Positions 16,465 to 30,505 of a stretch of DNA of 64,000 bases are shown here, piece by piece. The stretch is from Burkholderia stabilis (lineage in GTDB: Bacteria; Pseudomonadota; Gammaproteobacteria; Burkholderiales; Burkholderiaceae), in contig NZ_CP016443.1 of the NCBI RefSeq assembly GCF_001742165.1, forward strand, positions 3,038,001 to 3,102,000. The letters run 5' to 3'. The notes under the pieces are model-generated. The model saw only the letters and a program-made list of their open reading frames with translations. It was not told the origin of the DNA and did no database searches. The translations under genes were made by a program, and so were the position numbers. How positions within the stretch are numbered: the first letter of the stretch is position 1; every line of letters starts with the position of its first letter.

Positions 16465-16622
16465 TTTGCACCGATCCCGCCGGTATGGGCGCCCGCATAT
16501 GCCCGCCTGTCAACAACATAACGAATCTCGCATGATTGGTATCTGAAATCAGCGATGTGCTTCCGCGCCCGCATGCCGATAACCCAAGCTGGCTCAGACC
16601 GAGCGGTTATCGAGGGTTCCCC

Positions 16623-18485
16623 ATGCATCTCTGGCGCAAGCTTTCCATACAGAACAAGCTGATTCTCAGCATGACGAGTTGCCTGCTCGTGTTCGTCGCG
16701 ATTTCGAGCGGCCTGAGCATCCGTCTGATCGGCAACGCGGTGCGCGATCGCGTCGTCCGCGAAGAGTTGCCGACCGCCGTGAACGGCATTCGCGCCGACG
16801 TGCAGCGGCAGATGGCCGGCCCGATCGCCGCGTCGCGCATTCTCGCGCGCGATGCGTTCCTGCTGCAATGGGAAGCCGACGGCGAACCCGACGCCGGCAC
16901 GCGCAATTGGATCCAGCTCGCGAAGAACGTGAAGGACGAGCAGAAGGCGGCGTCCGTGCAGTGGGTGTCGGTGAAGAGCGGCAACTACTACAACGAAGCC
17001 GGCCTGCAGCGGAAGGTGACCGACAAGGATCAGTGGCTGACCGGCTTCCTGTCCTCCGGCAAGGCGTTCGACGTGAACATGGATCGCGAGGTCACGCTCG
17101 GCGGCTACATGATGTTCATCAACAGCCGCGTGGAACTCGACGGCGTGCCGATCGGCGCGGCCTGCATGAGCCTGTCCGTCGATGCGCTCGCGAAGGGCAT
17201 CGCCGCTTACCGGATCGGCGAGACCGGGTTCGCCTTTCTCGTGCGTCCCGACGGCGCGATCATGATGCATCGGGATACCGCGCTGATCGACGGCAAGCAT
17301 TTCCTGAAGGACCAGCCGGGGCTGCCGGGCGATGCGTCGTCGACGCTGCTGGCCGGCAAGCCGTATGCGTACCTGAGCTACAACGGCGACGGCGGCGCGC
17401 GGTTCATCGCGACGTCGTTCATTCCGGAGCTGAATGCGTATGTCGTCGTCGAGGTGCCGGAGGCGGAGCTGCTCGGGCCCGTGACGCGCGCGATCCGCAG
17501 CGCGGCGCTGGTCGCGGCGGTGGTTGGCCTCGGTGTCGCGCTGATCGTGATCTGGCTGGTCGGGCGCGCGATTGCCGCGCCGATCCGGCGCGCGGCGACG
17601 CTGCTGTCGCAGATCGCCAGCGGCCAGGGCGACCTGACGCGCCGCATGACGGTCGAGAGCGAGGACGAGATCGGGCAGTTGTCGGATGCGTTCAACCGGT
17701 TCGTGTCGTCGCTGTCGACGCTCGTTCACAGGATTCGCGCGGCTTCCGCGTCGATCGCGACTGGCTCGGCGCAGATTGCTTCGGGGAACGCGGATCTGAG
17801 CGAACGTACCGAAGGGCAGTCGAGCAACCTGGAGCGGACGGCTTCGTCGATGGAAGAGATCACGGCTGTGGTGCGCAACAACACCGAGACGGCGACGACG
17901 GCCGCGAAGATGATTAATGGTGCGTCGGATACGGCGGCGCGCGGCGGGCAGGTGGTGGGAGAGGTTGTGAGCACGATGGAGGAGATCAGCGACGCGTCAC
18001 AGCGGATTTCCGAAATCATCGTGATGATCGACAGTATTTCGTTTCAGACGAATATTCTGGCGTTGAATGCTGCGGTGGAGGCGGCGCGGGCCGGGGAGCA
18101 GGGGCGCGGGTTTGCGGTGGTGGCTTCGGAGGTGCGGAATCTGGCGCAGCGGAGTGCGCAGGCGGCGAAGGAGATCAAGGCGCTGATCGAGCATAGCGCG
18201 GGGACGGTGAATACCGGGTCGCGGCTGGTCAGCGAGGCGGGGAGGGTGATGAGCGACGTCGTTTCGCAGGTGCAGGGTGTGAGCGCGATGATGAGCGAGA
18301 TTGCCGAGGCTAGTCTGGAGCAGAGTGCCGGGATCGATCAGATCGGGGATGCGGTGCAGTCGCTGGATCAGATGACGCAGCAGAATGCGGCTTTGGTCGA
18401 GGAAAGCGCGGCGGCAGCGGCGAGTTTGAAGCAGCAGGCGGCGGAATTGACCAAGCTGGTGTCGGCTTTTAAGGTGGATGAGTAA
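16623..18485 (+). CDS. methyl-accepting chemotaxis protein
   Basis: 620 residues from ATG 16623, which has GAGGG upstream and opens [28 protein letters not shown], the first membrane helix. A periplasmic Cache-like sensor domain of about 260 residues follows, then a second helix ([20 protein letters not shown]), a HAMP domain, and a signalling domain with the hairpin motif [21 protein letters not shown]. It ends LVSAFKVDE without a CheR-tethering pentapeptide. Codon use shifts at about 17.75 kb towards G- and T-ending codons, as if the signalling part were recombined. Lies 158 bp behind the MotB-like gene, so it may serve that system. Confidence 0.93.
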
Positions 18486-20158: not shown

Positions 20159-21685
20159 ATGGTTACCTTTCTACATATCTCCGATCTCCATCGTGACTCT
20201 GGCAGTGGGCTCACCACCCGCTCACTTCTCGAATCCCTTCGCCTTGATCGGGAGCGCTACATCGCCGAAGGTCTGCCCCAACCAGATATCGCAATCGTCA
20301 GCGGCGACATCGTCTACGGTGTAACAAAGGACGATTCGAGTAGCGATGCGGCGTTGAGGGCTCAGTATGACGAGGCGTATAGCTTTCTAGTTGACCTCTC
20401 CGATTTATTCTTCTCGGGCAACCGGGATCGCATCGTCATAGTGCCGGGCAACCACGACATCAGCCACCCTCATGTTCTTAGAAGCACAGTTCCGGAGGAC
20501 ATTCCGACAGACGGAGTCCGACGCAAACTGATTGCGAGGCAACTTGGAGAAGATGAGTCGCTTTGGAGGTGGGTCTGGGCTGACTTTTCTCTTCGTAGGA
20601 TTTCGGATCGGAATGAATATGCGGAACGACTGAAGCCCTTCGCTATATTTTACGACTCGTTCTACGAGGGTCGCCGCAGGTTTTCGCTTGAACCGTCTCA
20701 ACAACTCTCGTTGCACGACTTCCCTGAGCTGGGTGTTGTCGTAGCGGGACTGTCCAGCTGCTGCGACAACGGCCTTTTCAATCGGTGCGGCAGGATCCAC
20801 CCTGATTGCATTGCCGGCGCGACTCGCGATGTCGCAGACTTAGTGCGGCTTGGACGTATTTCGATCGCCGTGTGGCATCACAACCTCGCCGGAGGCCCGA
20901 AAGATTCAGACTATGTCGAGGCTGAATTTTTGCAGAGCCTGATGGACGGAGGCTTCGCGCTGGGTTTTCACGGCCATCAGCATCGACCTCAGTTCATCGA
21001 GCACCGCTTCACTGCTGACAACGAGAAAGCAATTGCGGTGATCAGCGCAGGAACGTTATGCGGAGGTCCTCGTACACTCCCATCGGGCCGGATGCGGGCC
21101 TATAACCTTGTCTGTGTCGACACGGCAACGGGCCAATGCTCGCTGCACGTTCGAGACATGAAAAACTCTAATTTCAGCTCGCCTGTTTGGGGGCCAGCGA
21201 ACGTTCCGGAGTTCGGAGGTTCATCGATGTCTTTCGAGTTGAAGATTTCACCAAATGCGAGGCGTCCAGTTCTCATGGATGTGCCGCCTGTCCAAAACGG
21301 CGGTGACGAGTCCGGTCAGGCAGCGCAGGTAGCGGTCAACGAAAAGCTCGCGCTTGAAGCGGCGAGTGAAGCAGTCCGGTTGTTAAGGGGCGGCAAGGCT
21401 CAGCCTGCGATTGAAATCGTTCTGCCATATCTATCGAACCCCCTCGCCCGCCGAGTCGCCGTAGAGGCGCTCCTTGAACTCGACAAGTGGGAAGACATTG
21501 AGCGGCTTTGCAGCCCTCCGCAGTCGAACGCTGAACTCATTGCATTGATGGAAGCGCAATATCAGCTTGGCCATCGACCACAGCTGCGTGCGCTGATCGA
21601 ATCTGAAACCGTCACCATGAATCAAGATGCCGCTGTTCGACAAAGCGTTGATCAAGCCCGCGCACGACTGGGAGGAGGCCGCTAA
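20159..21685 (+). CDS. calcineurin-like metallophosphoesterase with helical C-terminal repeats
   Basis: 508 residues from ATG 20159; an upstream GTG at 20117 is possible. All metallophosphatase motifs are present: DLH (D9, H11), GDIVYG (G49-D50), VPGNHDIS, WHHN and GFHGHQH, so a two-metal active site should be intact. After about residue 370 the chain becomes Ala/Leu-rich and helical (LALEAASEAVRLLRGGKAQPAIEIVLPYL...), resembling TPR-type repeats for protein contact. The stop codon TAA abuts the ATG of the Hsp90-like gene and GGAGGAGG lies just before it, so the two are translationally coupled. In this island setting a nucleotide- or nucleic-acid-directed defence role is a reasonable but unproven idea. 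Confidence 0.85.
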   Translation: MVTFLHISDLHRDSGSGLTTRSLLESLRLDRERYIAEGLPQPDIAIVSGDIVYGVTKDDSSSDAALRAQYDEAYSFLVDLSDLFFSGNRDRIVIVPGNHDISHPHVLRSTVPEDIPTDGVRRKLIARQLGEDESLWRWVWADFSLRRISDRNEYAERLKPFAIFYDSFYEGRRRFSLEPSQQLSLHDFPELGVVVAGLSSCCDNGLFNRCGRIHPDCIAGATRDVADLVRLGRISIAVWHHNLAGGPKDSDYVEAEFLQSLMDGGFALGFHGHQHRPQFIEHRFTADNEKAIAVISAGTLCGGPRTLPSGRMRAYNLVCVDTATGQCSLHVRDMKNSNFSSPVWGPANVPEFGGSSMSFELKISPNARRPVLMDVPPVQNGGDESGQAAQVAVNEKLALEAASEAVRLLRGGKAQPAIEIVLPYLSNPLARRVAVEALLELDKWEDIERLCSPPQSNAELIALMEAQYQLGHRPQLRALIESETVTMNQDAAVRQSVDQARARLGGGR

Positions 21686-22271
21686 ATGACACAAATTGCA
21701 TTCCAAGTCGATACGTCCCGTGTTTTGGAGATTCTTTCCAAGCAGATCTACGATTCTCCCTACGCGATGGCGCGAGAGAACGTGCAGAACGCGTACGACG
21801 CTGTTCTCATGCGTGCAAACCGAGAGCAAAAATCTCCTTCCGAGTATCAGATCGTTATCACAGCACGGCCCGACCAGATCGAGATCTCGGACCAAGGCAT
21901 CGGTATGACCGAAAAAGTTCTACGAGAGAACTTCTGGCGCGCTGGATCTTCAGGGAAGAACAATGATGCCGCTCGCGCAGCAGGTGTCATCGGAACATTT
22001 GGCATCGGTGCAATGGCCAACTTCGGTGTCTGTGATCGTTTGCAGATCGATACTCGTGCGATGGATCAGGCCACAGGCATCCGTACCTTCGCCCTCAAGA
22101 GTCAGCTGTCCATCGGTCAGGATTGCATCTCGCTGGAAAATCTTGATTCGTCCATCGAAGTTGGGACGAAGCTCACCGCACAAATCAGCCCGACGTCACC
22201 TATCAACGTCCAGGCTTTGCGGAACTACCTAGCGCCGTTCGTTCGGTTCCTCACGGTTCCCGTATTGCTAA
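21686..22271 (+). pseudogene. Hsp90-like (GHKL) ATPase, N-terminal part, interrupted by IS
   Basis: N-terminal 195 codons of an Hsp90-type ATPase. The Bergerat fold is visible: N-box RENVQNAYDAV (about residues 30-40), ISDQGIGM (about 67-74) and GTFGIGAMA (about 103-111). Reading continues into an IS5-family element and stops at 22342. Removing 22272-23185 and one copy of TAA restores an exact frame (VPVLLNGELLSQQ) with the downstream piece, giving a protein of about 706 residues. So the gene was intact until the insertion. A truncated ATPase domain could still be made. Confidence 0.85.
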
Positions 22272-22280
22272 GAGACGGTT

Positions 22281-22748
22281 TCATAAAGACTGATCGGCCC
22301 GCCGAAGGGTATTCCAGCAGATCAGACAGCAACCGAGTTTGAGGAACGCGCCGTGAATGTCTGCACGGCGCTCGAAACGAATACGGAGACGACGGAAGTG
22401 ATGCAGCCAGGCATGCGTGCGTTCGACGACCCAGCGATATTTGCCAAGGCCGCTGCCATGTTCGGTACGGCGCTTGGCGATCACTGGCTCGATACCGCGA
22501 TCGCGCAACGCGCGCCGATGTCGCTCGGAGTCGTAACCGCGATCCGCGTAGACCACACGCGGCCGCTGCAATGGGTGGCCACGCAATCCGCGGATCGGCG
22601 GAATCGCGTCGATCAGCGGCAGCAATTGCGTGACGTCGTTGACGTTCGCGCCGGTCAGGATCGCGGCGAGCGGCGTACCGTTGGCGTCGGTGACGATGTG
22701 GTGCTTGGAACCGGGTCGCGCGCGATCGGTGGGGTTTGGCCCAGTTTT
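22281..22748 (-). CDS. IS5-family transposase, second ORF (by -1 frameshift)
   Basis: About 155 codons in the -1 frame, reading TGPNPTDRARPGSKHHIVTDANGTPLA and then RVVYADRGYDS (second Asp) and YRWVVERTHAWL (Glu), the DDE transposase core. There is no good start codon, so it is made as a fusion with the first ORF through slippage at the A-run. Confidence 0.85.
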   Translation of the reverse strand, partial: KTGPNPTDRARPGSKHHIVTDANGTPLAAILTGANVNDVTQLLPLIDAIPPIRGLRGHPLQRPRVVYADRGYDSERHRRALRDRGIEPVIAKRRTEHGSGLGKYRWVVERTHAWLHHFRRLRIRFERRADIHGAFLKLGCCLICWNTLRRADQSL

Positions 22749-23098
22749 TGGCCTGCCCCAACGGCGCGAATCGATGATGAATCGACGGCGGCTCGTGAGA
22801 AGTCGATCTGGTCCGCTGCGCGCAGCTTTGCGAGCAGTAGCTCGTGCAAGCGATCCCAGACACCGGCTGCTTGCCAATCGCGCAGCCGGCGCCAACATGT
22901 CACGCCCGAGCCGCATCCCATCTCGGCCGGCAGGTCGCGCCAGCGTAGTCCGGTCTTGAGAACGAACAGGATGCCGGTCAGCGCGGCGCGATTCGAAACA
23001 GGCAGGCGGCCCGGGTTCTTCTCGCGCCGCGGCTTGGGTGGCGGCAGTAACGGCTCGATCAGTGTCCACAATTCATCGTCGATGATCGGCTTGGCCAT
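22655..23098 (-). CDS. IS5-family transposase, first ORF
   Basis: 147 codons, starting MAKPIIDDELWTLIEPLLPP, the DUF4096-type N-terminal domain of IS5 transposases, with the first catalytic Asp in RAAVDSSSIR. It runs past the shift point to an out-of-frame end. A -1 slip on the five A residues (complement of 22746-22750) would join it to the second ORF, giving the full DDE enzyme. Confidence 0.85.
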   Translation of the reverse strand: MAKPIIDDELWTLIEPLLPPPKPRREKNPGRLPVSNRAALTGILFVLKTGLRWRDLPAEMGCGSGVTCWRRLRDWQAAGVWDRLHELLLAKLRAADQIDFSRAAVDSSSIRAVGAGQKLGQTPPIARDPVPSTTSSPTPTVRRSPRS

Positions 23099-23188
23099 CT
23101 CCTCAGTCTCGGTTGTTCCGATGCCTGAGGTTAACAGCTCACCGCGAAAGTTAACAGCCCCACGGGGCCTTTTTGAAACCGTCTCTAA

Positions 23189-24723
23189 ACGGGGAATTGC
23201 TTAGCCAACAAGACGTCAGATCTGCTGCGGGCATCGGAGCGAATTGGAGAGCCCTCGACACAAAGCAACTGAACACAGGACGGTTTGCTTTCGAGGCGTG
23301 CGTGCTGGTTGATGGCAATCAGGTGGCAGTCGTTATCGACAAGCTAATGATCGACGGAGAGGCGAGTCCTGGTGGAGCGTGGCTTAGGAACGGGGCCGGT
23401 CAGGTGATGGGGCTCCGATCGAGATTCGGTCTCGCACCAATTCCGCTCCCGACTCACTATCAGCTGGGCGGCTTTGCTGATCTGCCCTTCCTTCTGCCGA
23501 CCGCGGGGCGCGAGGCTCTTACTCGCGAGTCAATCCAAGAAGCGACTCAACTTATTTCTCCGATTGAATCCGCTCTCACGGAAGCACTAAAGGACACTGA
23601 TCTGGCTGACACCCTCCAAGCGTTTCAGCAACACCTCATCCAGATCGGGCGGATCGATTGGGCGGGACGTGTGAGCATTCAACTAAGCCCAGGGGATCAG
23701 CGGATGGAGTTGGGAAAGCTTCGAGACGACCATCCAGGAGTCGAGCTTCACTGGTACACCGGGACTGATAGTGATCAAATCAACACCTTCGCCAGCGAGG
23801 ACTCTCCGTTGATCCGCGTAAGTCAGACGAATCCTCGTCGGGAAATTCAGCAACGCTATCTGAGAGACGTCCTTCGATTGCCGGAGGTACCGAACGTGGT
23901 CAGCATTGTCGAGACTTACGATCCTAGAGACTTGTCGTTCGACGAAGTGACTCTCATGCTGGCAATAGCGAGGGTTCTGAGGGTCGACTATCTAATTGAC
24001 GACATCGATCTCAAGTGGGTCAAGCTCAGTCACGGTGTGCCGATGCTGACCGAAATGACAGCTGAGAAACTGACGCTCAAGATATCGAGGACTTGGAGCG
24101 CGGTTCAAGCCGTCATCCAGGTCATAGCATCAACGCCGGAAGTGGCGGAGGGCATGACAAGGGACTTTGTGCGGGTGCACGTTTACGAACGCATCAAAGA
24201 ATTCGTTCCATCGTCTCAAAGAGCTGGGCTTGATGCCTTGCAAAAGACTCTCGCAAGGAGGCGTGAACTCTATCGACTGGAAGTCGATGACAAGGGAGAA
24301 CTCGAGCCGCTCTTGGCCGAATATCTTGCGGGTCATGTGCAGTTCATAGAGGTACTCAACGCCGCAACACGCGTCAGCGCCGGTCATACACAACGTGTCA
24401 GCAGTGACACCGTCGGCACGGTCGAGAACGCTCTGAATGACGTGGTCAACGCAAAGGTCGAACCTCAGGTCGTTCGCATCATCTCGGCACCCGAGTCCGG
24501 TTCTCCAATACTTCGAACAGACACTGAACTCAGAGAACGGCTGCTAACGACCGAGAGGGAAATTCTGCAGCTCAACAATCATCGCGTATTCCTCGCACTC
24601 TCTGACAGACTGTTCCAGCTTGAGCGAGAGTTCTTCACCTTCCCTCATTCAACACAAGTTGCCTGGGCGGGAAGGCGAATCGTCTATCTGTTCGGCTTGT
24701 CGCACTCCTCCGAAAACCTGTGA
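23189..24723 (+). pseudogene. Hsp90-like ATPase, C-terminal part, 3' end set by a second IS
   Basis: About 511 codons in frame with the N-terminal piece once the IS5 element is removed (NGELLSQQDVRSAAG...). It has Hsp90 middle-domain-like character but no motif recognised with certainty; a helical region with many Arg/Glu occupies the last 200 residues. The stop codon TGA at 24721-24723 is the first three bases of the IS3-family element, so the natural C-terminus may be lost. It should be regarded as a broken gene, although its long undegraded frame indicates recent inactivation. Confidence 0.75.
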
Positions 24724-24788
24724 CCTGCTCCCCGTAAACCGGGCCAGTCGGAATCTAGTAAAGTCCGTTTTCGGAGAGGAAGACGGAC

Positions 24789-25052
24789 ATGAAGAAGCGC
24801 TTTTCGGAAGAACAGATCATCGGCTTCCTGAAGGAAGCGGAGGCGGGCCTGCCGGTGAAGGAGCTGTGCAGGAAGCATGGGTTCAGTGACGCCTCGTTCT
24901 ACACGTGGCGCGCGAAGTTCGGCGGCATGGAGGTGTCGGAAGCCCGTCGGCTCAAGGAGCTGGAAGCCGAGAACGCGAGGCTGAAGAAGCTGCTGGCCGA
25001 GGCGATGCTCGATATGGAAGCCCTGAAGGTGGTCGTGAAGGGAAAGCCCTGA
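24789..25052 (+). CDS. IS3-family transposase orfA
   Basis: 87 codons: helix-turn-helix MKKRFSEEQIIGFLKEAEAGLPVKELCRKHGFSDASFYTW followed by a leucine-zipper-like coiled coil (RRLKELEAENARLKKLLAEAML). Binds the IS ends. Starts at the ATG after GAGAGGAAG. Confidence 0.9.
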   Translation: MKKRFSEEQIIGFLKEAEAGLPVKELCRKHGFSDASFYTWRAKFGGMEVSEARRLKELEAENARLKKLLAEAMLDMEALKVVVKGKP

Positions 25053-25906
25053 GCCCGCAGGCCAGGCGCGAGGCGGTCGCGGCGATTCGGCAGAAGGTCA
25101 ATGTCTCCGAGCGCCGTGCCTGCCGGCTTGTCGGGCTTTCGCGCAGCGTGCTGCATTATGAAGCGCAGCCGGACCACGAGAATGAGGCGCTCAAGGCGCG
25201 CCTCATCGAGCTGGGGCACCAGAGGCGGCGTTTCGGCTATCGGCGGCTACACGCGCTGCTGGCGCGCGAAGGAAGGCACGTAAACCACAAGCGCGTGCAC
25301 CGGCTGTATCGCGAGGCCGGACTGGCCGTGCGGCGCCGGCGACGGCGCCACGGCGTGATGGTCGAGCGCGAGCAGCTGGCTTTGCCGAGTACGCCGAACG
25401 AGGTGTGGTCCCTCGATTTCGTGATGGACGCATTGTCCAACGGGCGTCGCCTGAAGTGCCTGACCATTGTCGACGACTTCACCAAGGAAGCGGTCGAGAT
25501 CGTGGTGGACCACGGCATCTCGGGTCGGTATGTGACGCGCGTGCTGGACCGGGTGGCGCGCTTCAGGGGCTACCCGAAAGCGTTGCGCACGGACCAGGGA
25601 CCCGAATTCACGAGCCGCGCGCTGGACCAGTGGGCCTACGCCAACGGCGTGACGTTGAAATTGATTCAGGCGGGCAAGCCGACGCAGAATGCGTACATCG
25701 AGTCGTTCAATGGCAAGTTTCGTGACGAGTGTCTGAACGAGCACTGGTTCACGACGCTCGCCCACGCCCGGGCCGTGGTGTCGGCATGGCGCCGGGACTA
25801 CAACGAGGCACGGCCGCACAGCGCATTGAACTACCAGTCGCCGGCCGAATTCGCGGCGAAGCATCCGGCACCAGTAGGCGCTCCTGTCTTGCAGGAGCAT
25901 GTTTGA
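25043..25906 (+). CDS. IS3-family transposase orfB (integrase core, frameshift product)
   Basis: About 287 codons in the -1 frame relative to orfA, beginning around AAA GCC CTG at the end of orfA. HTH_21 region (FGYRRLHALL) and rve core with DDE residues in WSLDFVMD, RTDQGPEF and YIESFNGKFRDE. No deletions or stops are seen, so the element may be active. Confidence 0.9.
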   Translation, partial: KALSPQARREAVAAIRQKVNVSERRACRLVGLSRSVLHYEAQPDHENEALKARLIELGHQRRRFGYRRLHALLAREGRHVNHKRVHRLYREAGLAVRRRRRRHGVMVEREQLALPSTPNEVWSLDFVMDALSNGRRLKCLTIVDDFTKEAVEIVVDHGISGRYVTRVLDRVARFRGYPKALRTDQGPEFTSRALDQWAYANGVTLKLIQAGKPTQNAYIESFNGKFRDECLNEHWFTTLAHARAVVSAWRRDYNEARPHSALNYQSPAEFAAKHPAPVGAPVLQEHV

Positions 25907-25989
25907 ACAGGACTTTACTAGAAGCTCCGTGGCCCTATCGAAGGGGCAGGTCAGGACGAGCGCATCCGCTGCGCTTTCAACCCAGGCGC

Positions 25990-28089
25990 TCATGCTATGT
26001 CATCTCCAGGGTAGCCGCTGCTGCCGGTGTCCGGCGGGCACAGGCGTGATTCGAGCCAATGCAAACCTTCAGCAATATAGCTAGGTACAGTCCATTCCTC
26101 GGCGTACGCCAATATGTCCATGGCAAAGTCGGTCTTCTTGAAGCTGTCCGAGCGGATTCGATCATAGACGTCCTGATAAGCGTCGTTGAGAGTGGCAGGA
26201 ATGGGAATGCCGATCGAGAGCCTGCCGGAACGGAACAGCCCAAAATTCTCGTAGACAATTGCCTCCTCCAAGGTGCGCGGGCGAAGCGTCTGCGTGACTG
26301 AGCCGTCGGTCACTAGGACATCCGTCTGGAACGCGATGCAACGGTCCTTTCCGACATGCCGTTTATCGCGTTGGGTCAAAGCCATCAGGCCAGCTATGGT
26401 TGTTTGATCACAGAATTTCTTGAGGGATGCGTTGGAAGTCCGTGCACCGGCAACATCTGCCCGGCAGGCGCTCGGATAGCCTGTGGGCGTAACTGAATCG
26501 AGATCGGTGATGACGAGATAAGGGATTCGAAGAAAGCTAAGCAGGCCCTCGAAGCGGTGGCCGTAGGCACCACCCACCTCCAGAACCGTGAGATATGTGG
26601 TCCGCAGCCGCGTTGCGGCACTTTCGATCATAGCGGGCATAAGCAGTTTTTCGACAGCGCCCTCGACAAGAACAGTCGCATCGGCAAAGAACAAATCGCA
26701 GTGGGTCAAACGTAGATAGCGTTTAAGGAAAGCCAGCGACTCTGAGGGGGACACGAGCTTACCATCGATCGTTTCTGCTTCAGGTTGGAACGCACGAAGA
26801 CTGCTGACTTCGGACGCGTTTCGGATCCCGATCGCGGCGGTCTCTCCTTTGGTATGGCTGCGCCGAAAATAGCGAACCTTTTCGAAATCCACTGCCTCCA
26901 TGATGTGCGAGGAGTGGGTGGTGACGACTAGCTGCGGCACAAGATCGGGCTCGCCCGATGCCTCGGCAGACTGGTTGATTACTTGCCAAATATTGGAGAT
27001 AAAGGTCTGTTGGACTTGTGCGTGGAGGTGAACTTCGGGCTCCTCGATGAAGATCAGCAAGGTAAGCGGTCTATTCTCGACGGTCATCACCCATTGAGAA
27101 TGAAAATGCCTAGCTTGAATGGCCATGTAGATGAGGTTTTTGAAGCCGAGGCCATTGTATAGCTCGGGAAGCTCATGCTGTCGGTTCGGGTCGACGTAGA
27201 GCAACTCCGTGCTTCCGCGCAATGCGGTTTCCGGACTAAGGGATGAGACGATTCGCAGTTCACGATCATTAATTGACGGGACTCCGAGGCGCTTGATAAG
27301 ACTAATCAGCGGTTCAAATTGTTTTGCGTAGTGATCGGTCAGTTGTTTGTTGTTTTCGTCGATCACACTGTGCGCATCGGCTGCGGGGCCAGCCTGTTCG
27401 AGATTCTTTCGGTAAAAGGCCGAAAACGCGGATGACAGCCGGTTGCTTCGGCTACTGTCGTCGTCGTTGATGTTGCGCTGAGCGTCGACGAATTCTACCT
27501 TTATAAGATGCTTTAGAAGCCGCTTGCCTTCCTCTGAGTCAAGTTCGTCGGCCATGATCTCAGGCGGAGCTCCAGTCTCAGATTGCTCGTCAAGCGAAAA
27601 ATAGCGGGTCGTGCAGTGGCGTCCAAGATTCCCTTCGAGAGCCAGATATTGCGATAGCGCCTTGACACGTGTCCCATCCTTCTGTTTTGGATAGGCGGCA
27701 TCATAACTCTCGCGCAGTTTCTTTACGTCTGCGATTTCATAGGACAGTCGGATACCGACTCGGGTGAAATCCGATAGCTTGGGAAGCAGCGTGAAAACCC
27801 TACCGAAGGCGATGCTTTCCGGATCTATGGAGAACCATAGATCAAGACTAATTTTAGGAAGTCGCTCTGCATCTCCGGTGGTGATAAATGCATCAAAATC
27901 GATCATCCGTGCAACCGAGAAATCGTGTATCTTGAAATCACGTCCCCCGAGGAAGCAGCGAAATATTGCAGTGGCAGACGTCTTGCCGCTATTGTTTGGT
28001 CCAACAAAGATTGTTTCGCGCTCTTCGATGTCAATTTTAACATCCTCGAGTCGCCTAAAATTTCGTATGGCGATGCCGCTGATCTTCAT
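25990..28089 (-). CDS. OLD-family ATP-dependent endonuclease (AAA + TOPRIM)
   Basis: 699 residues. N-terminal SMC-like ATPase: IRNFRRLEDVKI, Walker A GPNNSGKTS at about 30-38, and Walker B LLIFIEEPEVHLHAQ with the downstream TTHSSHIM switch His. C-terminal TOPRIM nuclease: VLVEGAVEKLLMPAMI supplies the metal-binding Glu and YLVITDLDSVTP the DxD. This is the OLD (overcoming lysogenization defect) arrangement also found in Gabija GajA. No UvrD-type helicase (GajB) is adjacent, so it resembles the single-gene class 1 type, or its partner was lost beside the IS3 element 36 bp from its 3' end. AAGG lies before the ATG. Probable phage-defence gene. Confidence 0.88.
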   Translation of the reverse strand: MKISGIAIRNFRRLEDVKIDIEERETIFVGPNNSGKTSATAIFRCFLGGRDFKIHDFSVARMIDFDAFITTGDAERLPKISLDLWFSIDPESIAFGRVFTLLPKLSDFTRVGIRLSYEIADVKKLRESYDAAYPKQKDGTRVKALSQYLALEGNLGRHCTTRYFSLDEQSETGAPPEIMADELDSEEGKRLLKHLIKVEFVDAQRNINDDDSSRSNRLSSAFSAFYRKNLEQAGPAADAHSVIDENNKQLTDHYAKQFEPLISLIKRLGVPSINDRELRIVSSLSPETALRGSTELLYVDPNRQHELPELYNGLGFKNLIYMAIQARHFHSQWVMTVENRPLTLLIFIEEPEVHLHAQVQQTFISNIWQVINQSAEASGEPDLVPQLVVTTHSSHIMEAVDFEKVRYFRRSHTKGETAAIGIRNASEVSSLRAFQPEAETIDGKLVSPSESLAFLKRYLRLTHCDLFFADATVLVEGAVEKLLMPAMIESAATRLRTTYLTVLEVGGAYGHRFEGLLSFLRIPYLVITDLDSVTPTGYPSACRADVAGARTSNASLKKFCDQTTIAGLMALTQRDKRHVGKDRCIAFQTDVLVTDGSVTQTLRPRTLEEAIVYENFGLFRSGRLSIGIPIPATLNDAYQDVYDRIRSDSFKKTDFAMDILAYAEEWTVPSYIAEGLHWLESRLCPPDTGSSGYPGDDIA

Positions 28090-29264: not shown

Positions 29265-30505
29265 TCAACGCCCACCGTCCCGCGCTTTCACGACCTTCCC
29301 ACGCTGAAGCACAAACGCAACCTGCTCACCTTCACCCGAAACGACGCCGATATCATCGAGCGGGTTTCCATCGAGCACGGCCATATCGGCGATCGCACCA
29401 GCGGCAACAACCCCCAGTTGCCCAGCCATGTTGACGATCTCCGCCGCCACAGTCGTCGCTGACCTGAGCGCTTCCAGATTCCCGAGCACTTCCGCCCGAA
29501 TCCGAAACTCGCCGGACTGAAACGTGTGCATTTCCCCAAGCAGATCCGACCCGAACCCCATCTTCACACCGGCCTTCGAATAAATCTCCAGCGATTCTCG
29601 TCCCTTCTGCTGCACGGAAGCCACCTTCGCAACGGAGTCAGCCGGCATCCCGAACTCCGCGCCATGTTTGGCAAGTGCGTCATAAGTCACAAGCGTAGGC
29701 ACCACAAACGCCCCATGCTCATGCATAAGCTTCGCCGCCGCCTCGTCCACAAGATTCCCGTGCTCGATCGTCCTCACGCCACATCGCACAGCCCGCGCAA
29801 TCGCCCGCCCCGTATACGCATGCGCCATCACATAAGTATTCGCGGCTTCAGCCTCATCAACGATCGCCCGAATCTCATCCTCCGAATACTGCGTGTTCGC
29901 AATCGGATCGGTCGGCGAAGCAACCCCACCTGAAGCCATGATCTTGATCTGCGTCGCGCCTTTCTGAATCTCCTCACGCACGGCGAGCCTTACCCCTTCA
30001 ACCCCATCCACCACCCGCGCAATCGCCCCCGTCCTGAAACAGCAAGAGCAGGGCTCCAGCAAATCCCCCGAGGCCGAAAATCCCCGTGCCCGCCGGTCTG
30101 CGACAACGCTTTCCCCGACGGAAAAATCCTCGGCCCTGAAACCAGCCCCGTCTCGACCGCCTGCATCAACGCCCAATCCGCGCCACCCGCATCCCGCACG
30201 CTGGTAAACCCACGCGACAACATCGCATCGAGAATCGGCAACGACCGAATCGCCGCGAGAATATTCGGCTGCGTTGCATTCGCCCCGAGATTCGCATTCG
30301 AAGCCAGCACATGCACATGGCAATCGATGAACCCCGGCATCACGGTCTTGCCACGCACATCGATCACCTGCGCATTCGGCAAATCCACCGGCCGATCGGT
30401 GACTTCGACGATCCGCTCGCCTTCGATCACGACATGATGATGTTCGAGCAACACGCCTCGTTCGAGGTCGAGGACGTTGCCGCCTTGAAGCACGGTAATG
30501 GTCAT
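29265..30505 (-). pseudogene. metal-dependent amidohydrolase, frameshifted
   Basis: Reads as two frames of one protein of about 413 residues. The first (30505 to about 30066) has MTITVLQGGNVLDLERGVLL, the metal motif DCHVHV and RGFTSVRDAGG; the second (to 29265) has QIKIMASGG with the bridging Lys, MAHAYT, IEHGNLVD, GFGSDLLG and the usual DMAVLDGNPLDDI tail. The join RPRG/DLLEPCSCC needs one more G in the run at 30065-30069 (read as C on the plus strand). It is therefore either a one-base deletion or a sequencing error. The family comprises prolidase/imidazolonepropionase-like hydrolases; the substrate is unknown. Twelve bp behind the transporter gene, so one operon. Confidence 0.85.

What the first reader, a model, noticed from the sequence alone, without database searches (positions are those of the whole stretch)
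20159..24723. Metallophosphoesterase translationally coupled to an Hsp90-like ATPase: candidate two-gene defence system
The metallophosphoesterase has all five metal motifs and a helical repeat tail; its stop codon touches the ATG of a GHKL/Hsp90-like ATPase with complete Bergerat motifs. The pair sits in a lower-GC island with an OLD nuclease, an HNH remnant, a SymE-like toxin and IS elements, which is the usual company of phage-defence genes. I could not match the pair to a named defence system. Function is inference.
Basis: partly seen in the sequence, partly recalled or inferred. Interest (0 to 1): 0.75.

Follow-up and report, generated by a model that had tools for sequence, protein, structure and literature searches.

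The report
Phosphodiesterase–Hsp90 gene pair, probable phage defence
Distantly related bacteria carry two touching genes, a phosphate-cutting enzyme and an Hsp90-like chaperone, often near anti-phage genes, which suggests an undescribed immune system; the copy in this genome has been broken by jumping DNA.

Summary
The pair is real. A metallophosphoesterase (MPE, 20159-21685) is followed by an Hsp90-like ATPase whose ATG touches its stop. The window's ATPase is broken: an IS402-like element splits it after codon 195, an IS407-like element cuts it after codon 706 (the apparent stop at 24723 is the element's first bases), and the last 62 codons are absent.

Best reading: an undescribed two-gene defence system in which an Hsp90-type clamp controls a phosphodiesterase effector. 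The genetics is strong; trigger, substrate and phenotype are unknown.

The parts
20159..21685 (+). Metallophosphoesterase (508 aa): PF00149 domain and a C-terminal helical tail; departs from the family at residue 205
   Evidence: PF00149 E 1.6e-9; ligands present; residue 205 differs from P0001 and is invariant in 43 aligned relatives; model of homologue P0020, pLDDT 92
21686..22270 (+). Hsp90-like ATPase, N-terminal piece (codons 1-195, Bergerat fold)
   Evidence: PF13589 E 4.4e-9; NF010683 HSP90 family 7.3e-26, below cut-off; tblastn of P0121
22272..23185 (-). IS402-like (IS5 family) insertion element splitting the ATPase; TAA on both sides
   Evidence: ends read; 99.9% match to a record annotated IS5-like element IS402 family (H15)
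23186..24720 (+). Hsp90-like ATPase, middle and C-terminal piece (to codon 706); last 62 codons absent
   Evidence: tblastn of P0121 finds nothing after residue 706; the listed homologues of this piece are mostly 768-aa-sized ATPases
24721..25953 (+). IS407-like (IS3 family) insertion element; its first three bases form the apparent stop codon at 24721-24723; flanks do not match
   Evidence: ends read; matches to elements annotated IS3 family, one of them IS407 (H9-H13)
25990..28089 (-). Neighbour: OLD/GajA-type ATPase-TOPRIM gene (not part of the pair)
   Evidence: PF13175, PF20469; PADLOC GajA 1.6e-211
16536..18485 (+). Left flank of the hotspot: methyl-accepting chemotaxis protein (name recalled from its sequence, no family search made)
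   Evidence: found left of the same right flank in 20 of 20 Burkholderia regions fetched
29265..30505 (-). Right flank of the hotspot: amidohydrolase-like gene (name recalled, no family search made)

Best explanation
An undescribed two-gene anti-phage system. Shown by comparison: the two genes form one conserved unit with overlapping or touching reading frames and no fixed third partner. Shown by modelling only: the second protein has the Hsp90 layout (ATPase and middle domains, less tightly the C-terminal domain) plus an extra C-terminal part; the first is a phosphodiesterase-type metallophosphoesterase with a helical tail. Inferred: the Hsp90-like dimer works as an ATP-driven clamp that senses a phage product or a hijacked or misfolded host protein, binds the MPE (perhaps through the tail), and releases or activates it; the MPE then hydrolyses a nucleotide, cyclic nucleotide or other phosphodiester and halts infection, probably by stopping the cell. 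The Hsp90 part would play the role that a NACHT/NB-ARC/STAND switch plays in related single-chain proteins. In this genome the system has been lost: the ATPase is cut twice and lacks its end.
For: Pairing: 29 loci have an unsplit MPE ORF above 250 bits; 27 of them have the ATPase directly downstream, L008 cannot be judged (contig end) and L015 has none; 4 further loci with a split MPE ORF have it too, giving 31 pairs. In these 31 the in-frame start codon nearest the MPE stop lies -14 to +14 nt from it, 15 of 31 with a 4-nt overlap. Reverse direction: 4 of 4 plasmid records and 3 of 3 viral loci with the ATPase have the MPE. Distances of the two proteins correlate over 26 pairs (Pearson 0.90, Spearman 0.77; best of 2000 permutations 0.29 Pearson), which shared host descent would also produce in part. 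Neighbour families are shared by at most 3 of 28 loci. Both active sites have invariant residues: 43 MPEs; 44 ATPases. Folds. Not the housekeeping Hsp90: 13 of 22 pair genomes also have an HtpG above the cut-off, and the pair ATPases score 46-80 bits against 371. Defence company: versus control 51; an annotated ABC three-component system beside the pair on a conjugative plasmid. The window's site is a hotspot with defence-model cargo. Of 6 larger MPE proteins scanned, 4 carry NB-ARC, NACHT, nSTAND6 or Roc. Precedent: MPE activity is essential in DS-8 and DS-9 (PMC13092281, section 7 read); GHKL ATPase activity is essential in VcSduA (PMC12137116, passages).
Against: No phage-protection data were found for any member. 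Nothing shows that the proteins touch. Substrate and trigger are unknown. Only 7 of 20 hand-picked large neighbours scanned singly matched PADLOC at 1e-20, and for 9 of the loci looked at there no chosen ORF matched. The recA control is not empty: it matched mad3 (2 members), type II methyltransferase, MzaA, MkoA, MkoC, mad8, pVip and PDC-S37 models. Model counts are inflated because one protein hits many models, and one search has no control. L015 has an MPE of this clade without the ATPase; 2 of 6 larger MPE proteins show no NTPase domain in Pfam (L061, L062). In the one chaperone-dependent bacterial NLR-like system looked at, deleting htpG had no effect (PMC12169576, passages). The window copy is broken, so it says nothing about function.
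Confidence: 0.62

Rival explanations
1. Toxin plus dedicated chaperone-antitoxin: the MPE is toxic by itself and the Hsp90-like protein keeps it in an inactive state; loss of the ATPase or of ATP, for whatever reason, frees the toxin. Phage defence would be one outcome, maintenance of the mobile island another.
For: Two-gene operon with touching frames, accessory and mobile distribution including conjugative plasmids, no conserved third gene.
Against: The ATPase is large and its motif residues are conserved in 44 aligned sequences, more like an active machine than a simple antitoxin. In the window the MPE frame is still open although the ATPase is destroyed, which a strongly toxic MPE would hardly allow; but its residue 205 is changed, so this is weak.
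Confidence: 0.22
2. A stress or protein-quality module comparable to eukaryotic Hsp90 with protein phosphatase 5: the MPE dephosphorylates clients held by the Hsp90-like clamp; no immune role.
For: Hsp90-type model; Hsp90 complexes titled with PP5 are among the structural matches of the ATPase (8gae, 8gft). That PP5 is a calcineurin-like phosphatase with helical repeats is recalled.
Against: Sporadic distribution (full-length MPE in 2 of 399 Burkholderiales genomes; ATPase in 1 of 369 genomes of the class), defence-model neighbours and hotspot location. The MPE resembles phosphodiesterases of the Rv0805/SMPDL3A type.
Confidence: 0.1
3. Defence against plasmids or other mobile elements, or competition between elements, rather than phage defence.
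For: Present on conjugative megaplasmids and in three contigs of the viral collection, so some mobile elements carry it themselves.
Against: The neighbouring systems recognised are known mainly as anti-phage (names; their role recalled); carriage by mobile elements is common for anti-phage systems too (recalled).
Confidence: 0.15

Closest known systems
DS-9 (DefensePredictor; NCBIfam NF053862, DS9_1_antiphage)
   Same: Two genes, the first with a metallophosphatase domain essential for defence (PMC13092281, section 7 read); best NCBIfam hit of the window's MPE, E 9.9e-14 over residues 3-299
   Different: 51 bits against a cut-off of 420; DS-9's second gene is a HAD phosphatase, not an Hsp90-like ATPase; the match starts only at model position 195 of 486
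DS-8 (NCBIfam NF053861) and other MPE-STAND proteins
   Same: MPE coupled to an NTPase switch; 4 of 6 larger relatives of this MPE scanned carry NB-ARC, NACHT, nSTAND6 or Roc
   Different: One chain with a P-loop NTPase; here two genes and a Bergerat-fold Hsp90-like ATPase; 19 bits against a cut-off of 790
VcSduA / Shedu with GHKL ATPase
   Same: GHKL ATPase on the same module as a hydrolase, ATPase activity essential (PMC12137116, passages)
   Different: There a nuclease (DUF4263) on the same chain; here a separate MPE and an Hsp90-type layout; no DUF4263 match in the window pieces or P0136
Hsp90 family (HtpG, TRAP1)
   Different: About 13-19% identity in those alignments, extra C-terminal region after about residue 540, NCBIfam HtpG cut-off not reached, fixed MPE partner
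YydB (chain B of the integrative model 9a6c, titled YYDD-YYDB)
   Different: There modelled with YydD (recalled as an ABC-type ATPase of B. subtilis); partner here is Hsp90-like
Tiamat (PADLOC model TmtA; the link of the two names is recalled)
   Same: Weak match limited to residues 13-121 of the N piece, E 8.5e-5
   Different: Model of 1655 positions, a single large protein; no whole-length match

Membership tests
DS-9 | NF053862 score at or above cut-off (420 bits) | tested here: not met
   51 bits
DS-9 | Second gene is a HAD-like phosphatase | tested here: not met
   second gene is HATPase_c_3/HSP90-like
DS-8 | MPE and NACHT on one chain; NF053861 above cut-off | tested here: not met
   19 bits against 790; no P-loop domain found in the window's MPE or ATPase pieces
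Shedu with GHKL domain (VcSduA) | DUF4263 PD-(D/E)xK nuclease domain C-terminal to the ATPase | tested here: not met
   no such Pfam match in the two window pieces or in P0136
Tiamat | Whole-length match to TmtA | tested here: not met
   match limited to 13-121 of the N piece and 31-135 of 1655 model positions; none for the second piece
ABC three-component systems | ABC-type ATPase and middle component as fixed partners of the MPE | tested here: not met
   fixed partner is the Hsp90-like ATPase; no further gene conserved; one pair lies 3.2 kb from such a system on a plasmid, on the other strand
Hsp90 family | Bergerat-fold motifs | tested here: met
   invariant columns in 44 sequences; present in the window N piece
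Hsp90 family | N-terminal plus middle domain in Hsp90 arrangement | tested here: met
   Foldseek E 3.3e-21; VIA-align 4ivg 387 residues rmsd 4.9, 8eoa_B 384 residues rmsd 4.1; a predicted model
Hsp90 family | C-terminal dimerisation domain | tested here: inconclusive
   alignments reach model residue 529-545 but with rmsd 7-9; residues 537-565 are modelled below pLDDT 50 and pTM is 0.58
Hsp90 family | HtpG equivalog cut-off (NF003555, 371 bits) | tested here: not met
   64 bits for the N piece; pair ATPases 46-80 bits
Metallophosphoesterase superfamily | PF00149 above cut-off and metal-binding motifs | tested here: met
   38.9 bits against 21.5; residues present
Anti-phage defence system (functional class) | Protects cells from phage | not testable with these tools
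   needs an experiment
Anti-phage defence system (functional class) | Genomic association with known defence genes above a core-gene control | tested here: met
   against 51; hotspot; counts are of models, not of proteins, and the control is not empty

The most novel reading that the evidence does not exclude
Prokaryotes built an immune receptor out of an Hsp90: a dedicated chaperone clamp that does not merely support an NLR-type sensor, as Hsp90 does in plants and animals, but takes the place of the NACHT/STAND switch and directly controls a phosphodiesterase of the SMPDL3A/Rv0805 type, sensing infection through a client protein.
Probability: 0.35. Interest if true: 0.87.

Novelty: new variant of a known kind. 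Interest (0 to 1): 0.62.

Why it matters
Hsp90 is tied to immune receptors in plants and animals (stated in PMC12169576, passages read), and the Hsp40-type chaperone DnaJ mediates phage sensing by a bacterial NLR-related protein (same paper; there htpG deletion had no effect). A widespread prokaryotic operon that couples an Hsp90-like machine to a phosphodiesterase would make the question of how chaperone and immune effector became linked directly testable in a two-gene system. It also adds one more partner to the metallophosphatases whose immune substrates are still unknown (DS-8, DS-9; PMC13092281).

Tried and rejected
Considered and rejected: (1) that 24723 is the natural end of the ATPase (one search shows 62 codons missing; the stop comes from the IS end). 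(2) Membership in DS-8, DS-9, Shedu, Tiamat or ABC three-component systems (Membership tests). (3) A conserved third gene: all-against-all comparison of 334 neighbour ORFs of 28 loci (E<=1e-8, coverage over 50%) gave no family in more than 3 loci. (4) A second copy of the pair in the genome: the own-genome search with P0136 gave only the two window pieces and one weak match on contig 1 (637-aa ORF, E 5.4e-10, probably the housekeeping HtpG). (5) Phage genomes: no MPE match in 50,697 records; ATPase matches there are 6, all partial (at most 40% of the query) and weak. (6) A named repeat in the helical tail: of 6 tails at E<=1 in Pfam, 4 gave one weak hit each (DUF7384, PhnG, HEAT_2, CBS; none above its cut-off) and 2 none; the MPE profile's one PDB sequence match (9sah_A, tail region, E 8.6e-6, no stretch passing on its own) was not followed. 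(7) The fold lists barely test ATPase residues beyond about 540 and MPE residues beyond about 365, so no statement is made about those folds.

In one search the ATPase start was taken as the in-frame start codon nearest the MPE stop, which favours short distances. L014, L023 and L029 are in the pairing count but not in the neighbour count; L026 counts in both. L008 and L031 were not counted as pairs. Of 334 neighbour ORFs, the 195 within 5 kb and of at least 120 aa were scanned; of 155 recA-neighbour ORFs selected by the same limits, 126 were scanned, from 16 of the 20 control regions. The 20 hotspot regions are 20 of 27 clear matches outside the own genome; I left out 7, partly for short contigs. 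Tables show only the first 25 models. Supplementary tables of PMC13092281 could not be read here, so it stays open whether this pair is among its unvalidated predictions; its Fig. 6F legend names an HATPase in a predicted system whose identity I could not check.
Full report
THE OBSERVATION. The MPE ORF and the touching ATPase start are as described. The MPE carries PF00149 and the expected metal-site residues. The first piece of the second gene carries HATPase_c_3 and its best NCBIfam matches are Hsp90 families, below their cut-offs. The first break is an IS402-like element (22272-23185, TAA on both sides); the second is an IS407-like element (24721-25953) whose first bases make the apparent stop codon, with unmatched flanks, so the last 62 codons have probably been deleted with the element (ends read, element names). 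The MPE frame is open, but residue 205, invariant in the 43 aligned relatives, is replaced. Intact copies of both genes exist elsewhere.

WHERE IT LIES. The genome is 8.5 Mb in 3 contigs; the genus is Burkholderia, judged from the P0121 cluster name and from the most similar records. The pair is accessory: 0 of the 36 other same-genus species sampled have a full-length MPE (one has a partial match); 2 of 399 genomes of the order do, the own one included (4 have any match); only the own one of 398 in the phylum sample (14 have any match, the other 13 partial and low); and 1 of 369 in the class sample has the ATPase at E<=1e-30, the own one. Searches scored only the best 2 to 4 candidates per genome.

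THE SITE IS A HOTSPOT. The right flank was found in 30 of 61 Burkholderia genomes, 27 of them clear matches outside the own genome. I fetched 20 of these 27: in 20 of 20 the same chemotaxis-type gene lies on the left, with a gap of 0.44 to 14.4 kb (window 10.8 kb). In 18 of 20 the gap has a G+C content of 0.49-0.60; the other two are 0.67 (the 0.44-kb gap) and 0.66. The 77 ORFs of at least 170 aa in these gaps fall into 64 families, 57 of them singletons; one family, next to the chemotaxis gene, has 7 members. PADLOC models matched at E<=1e-15 include AriA, Old, GajA, UG5-nitrilase RT and PtuA (94 models from 77 ORFs, up to 7 members for a model; several of these models can match the same protein, and no control was run). 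In a further Burkholderia cenocepacia replicon the same flanks enclose different cargo. The window's other cargo includes an OLD/GajA-type gene.

THE PAIR IS ONE UNIT. In 29 + 2 of them a roughly 770-aa ATPase follows the roughly 480-aa MPE; in at least five the MPE is split or an ORF is cut in the contig. Among the loci with an unsplit MPE above 250 bits (29), 27 have the ATPase, L008 cannot be judged (contig end) and L015 has no ATPase within 10 kb; L031 (203 bits, short contig) is a fusion to a DUF1045-like region; the remaining loci, at 138 bits or less, are more distant MPE proteins, many of them large, without the ATPase. In the 31 pairs the in-frame start codon nearest the MPE stop lies between 14 nt before and 14 nt after it; 15 have the 4-nt overlap. 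Anchoring on the ATPase instead, 4 of 4 plasmid records and 3 of 3 viral loci have the MPE beside it. Pairwise distances of the two proteins correlate (26 pairs; Pearson 0.90, Spearman 0.77; best of 2000 permutations 0.29). Hosts in the record titles include Pseudomonadota of several classes, Bacteroidota, Acidobacteria, Planctomycetota, Chloroflexota, Nitrospinae, Actinomycetota and, as a metagenome bin, the archaeon Methanoperedens (phylum names partly recalled). There is no conserved third gene.

KIN OF THE MPE. Larger relatives found in the same scans carry the MPE with NB-ARC, CHAT and TPR (L033), NACHT and HEAT (L044), Roc and WD40 (L038) or nSTAND6 (L002); two more (L061, L062) show only the MPE. 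The former recall DS-8, where the metallophosphatase and the NACHT ATPase are both essential (PMC13092281, section 7 read). Calcineurin-type domains had been listed among effectors of STAND systems (PMC8195603, passages). So the domain is a known immune effector type whose partner here is exchanged for an Hsp90-like machine.

NEIGHBOURS ELSEWHERE. At E<=1e-20, 131 and 64 neighbour ORFs hit 142 and 68 PADLOC models; 126 recA-neighbour ORFs from 16 regions of the same set of genomes hit 22, among them mad3, MTase_II, MzaA, MkoA, MkoC, mad8 and pVip. One protein can hit dozens of models (32 for one type I specificity subunit), so these are not counts of proteins. Twenty large neighbours scanned singly gave 7 with a hit: a GajA-like ATPase (L028), LmuB (L032), PglW (L050), an RdrB-like protein (L056), Dsr2 (L009), a type I specificity subunit (L021) and a DEDDh-nuclease domain (L003); 13 gave none. 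PtuA, PtuB, type I methyltransferase, SoFic and PD-Lambda-3 models are hit by ORFs of the same set whose loci I did not resolve. On a Pseudomonas aeruginosa conjugative plasmid the pair lies 3.2 kb from an annotated ABC three-component system.

HOW IT PROBABLY WORKS. See Best explanation. Steps shown: the unit, its conservation, conserved catalytic residues, defence company. Steps resting on models: both folds. Steps inferred: complex formation, sensing, effector activation, substrate, abortive outcome.

NOVELTY. PADLOC 2023 gives only weak partial hits for either protein; NCBIfam gives no match above a cut-off. Nine literature searches showed no paper on this pair in their listings; most subscription papers, preprints not in the library, and supplementary tables were out of reach. 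Papers seen: PMC13092281 (section 7 and passages), PMC12137116, PMC12169576, PMC8195603, PMC3710099 and PMC12839542 (passages), PMC10568477 (outline and abstract); the last three added nothing on the pair. I file it as a new variant of a known kind: an effector-plus-ATPase defence module of new composition.

Noticed in passing
window 16536-18485 to 29265-30505: A Burkholderia hotspot between a chemotaxis-type gene and an amidohydrolase-like gene: same flanks in 20 of 20 regions fetched, variable mostly low-GC cargo matching AriA, Old, GajA, UG5-nitrilase RT and PtuA models.
   Followed up: partly
window 25990-28089: OLD/GajA-type gene. The ORF list shows no ORF over 150 aa between it and the right flank, so a full-size helicase partner beside it is unlikely; GajB itself was not searched for.
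   Followed up: no
L031:2-2230: An MPE of this family fused to a C-terminal DUF1045 / 2H-phosphoesterase-like region in a Nitrospira MAG contig.
   Followed up: no
L033, L038, L044, L002: MPE domains in NLR-like proteins with NB-ARC, CHAT, TPR, NACHT, HEAT, Roc, WD40 or nSTAND6; four loci in one Moorena bouillonii genome.
   Followed up: partly
L149 (NZ_MT732187.1): Intact-looking pair on a 453-kb conjugative P. aeruginosa plasmid, 3.2 kb from an ABC three-component system; two other P. aeruginosa plasmids carry it too.
   Followed up: partly
   Followed up: partly
L015:9992-11107: MPE of this clade, too short (372 aa) to have the helical tail and without an ATPase match in the locus: possibly a lone derivative, which would fit the tail going with the ATPase.
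   Followed up: no
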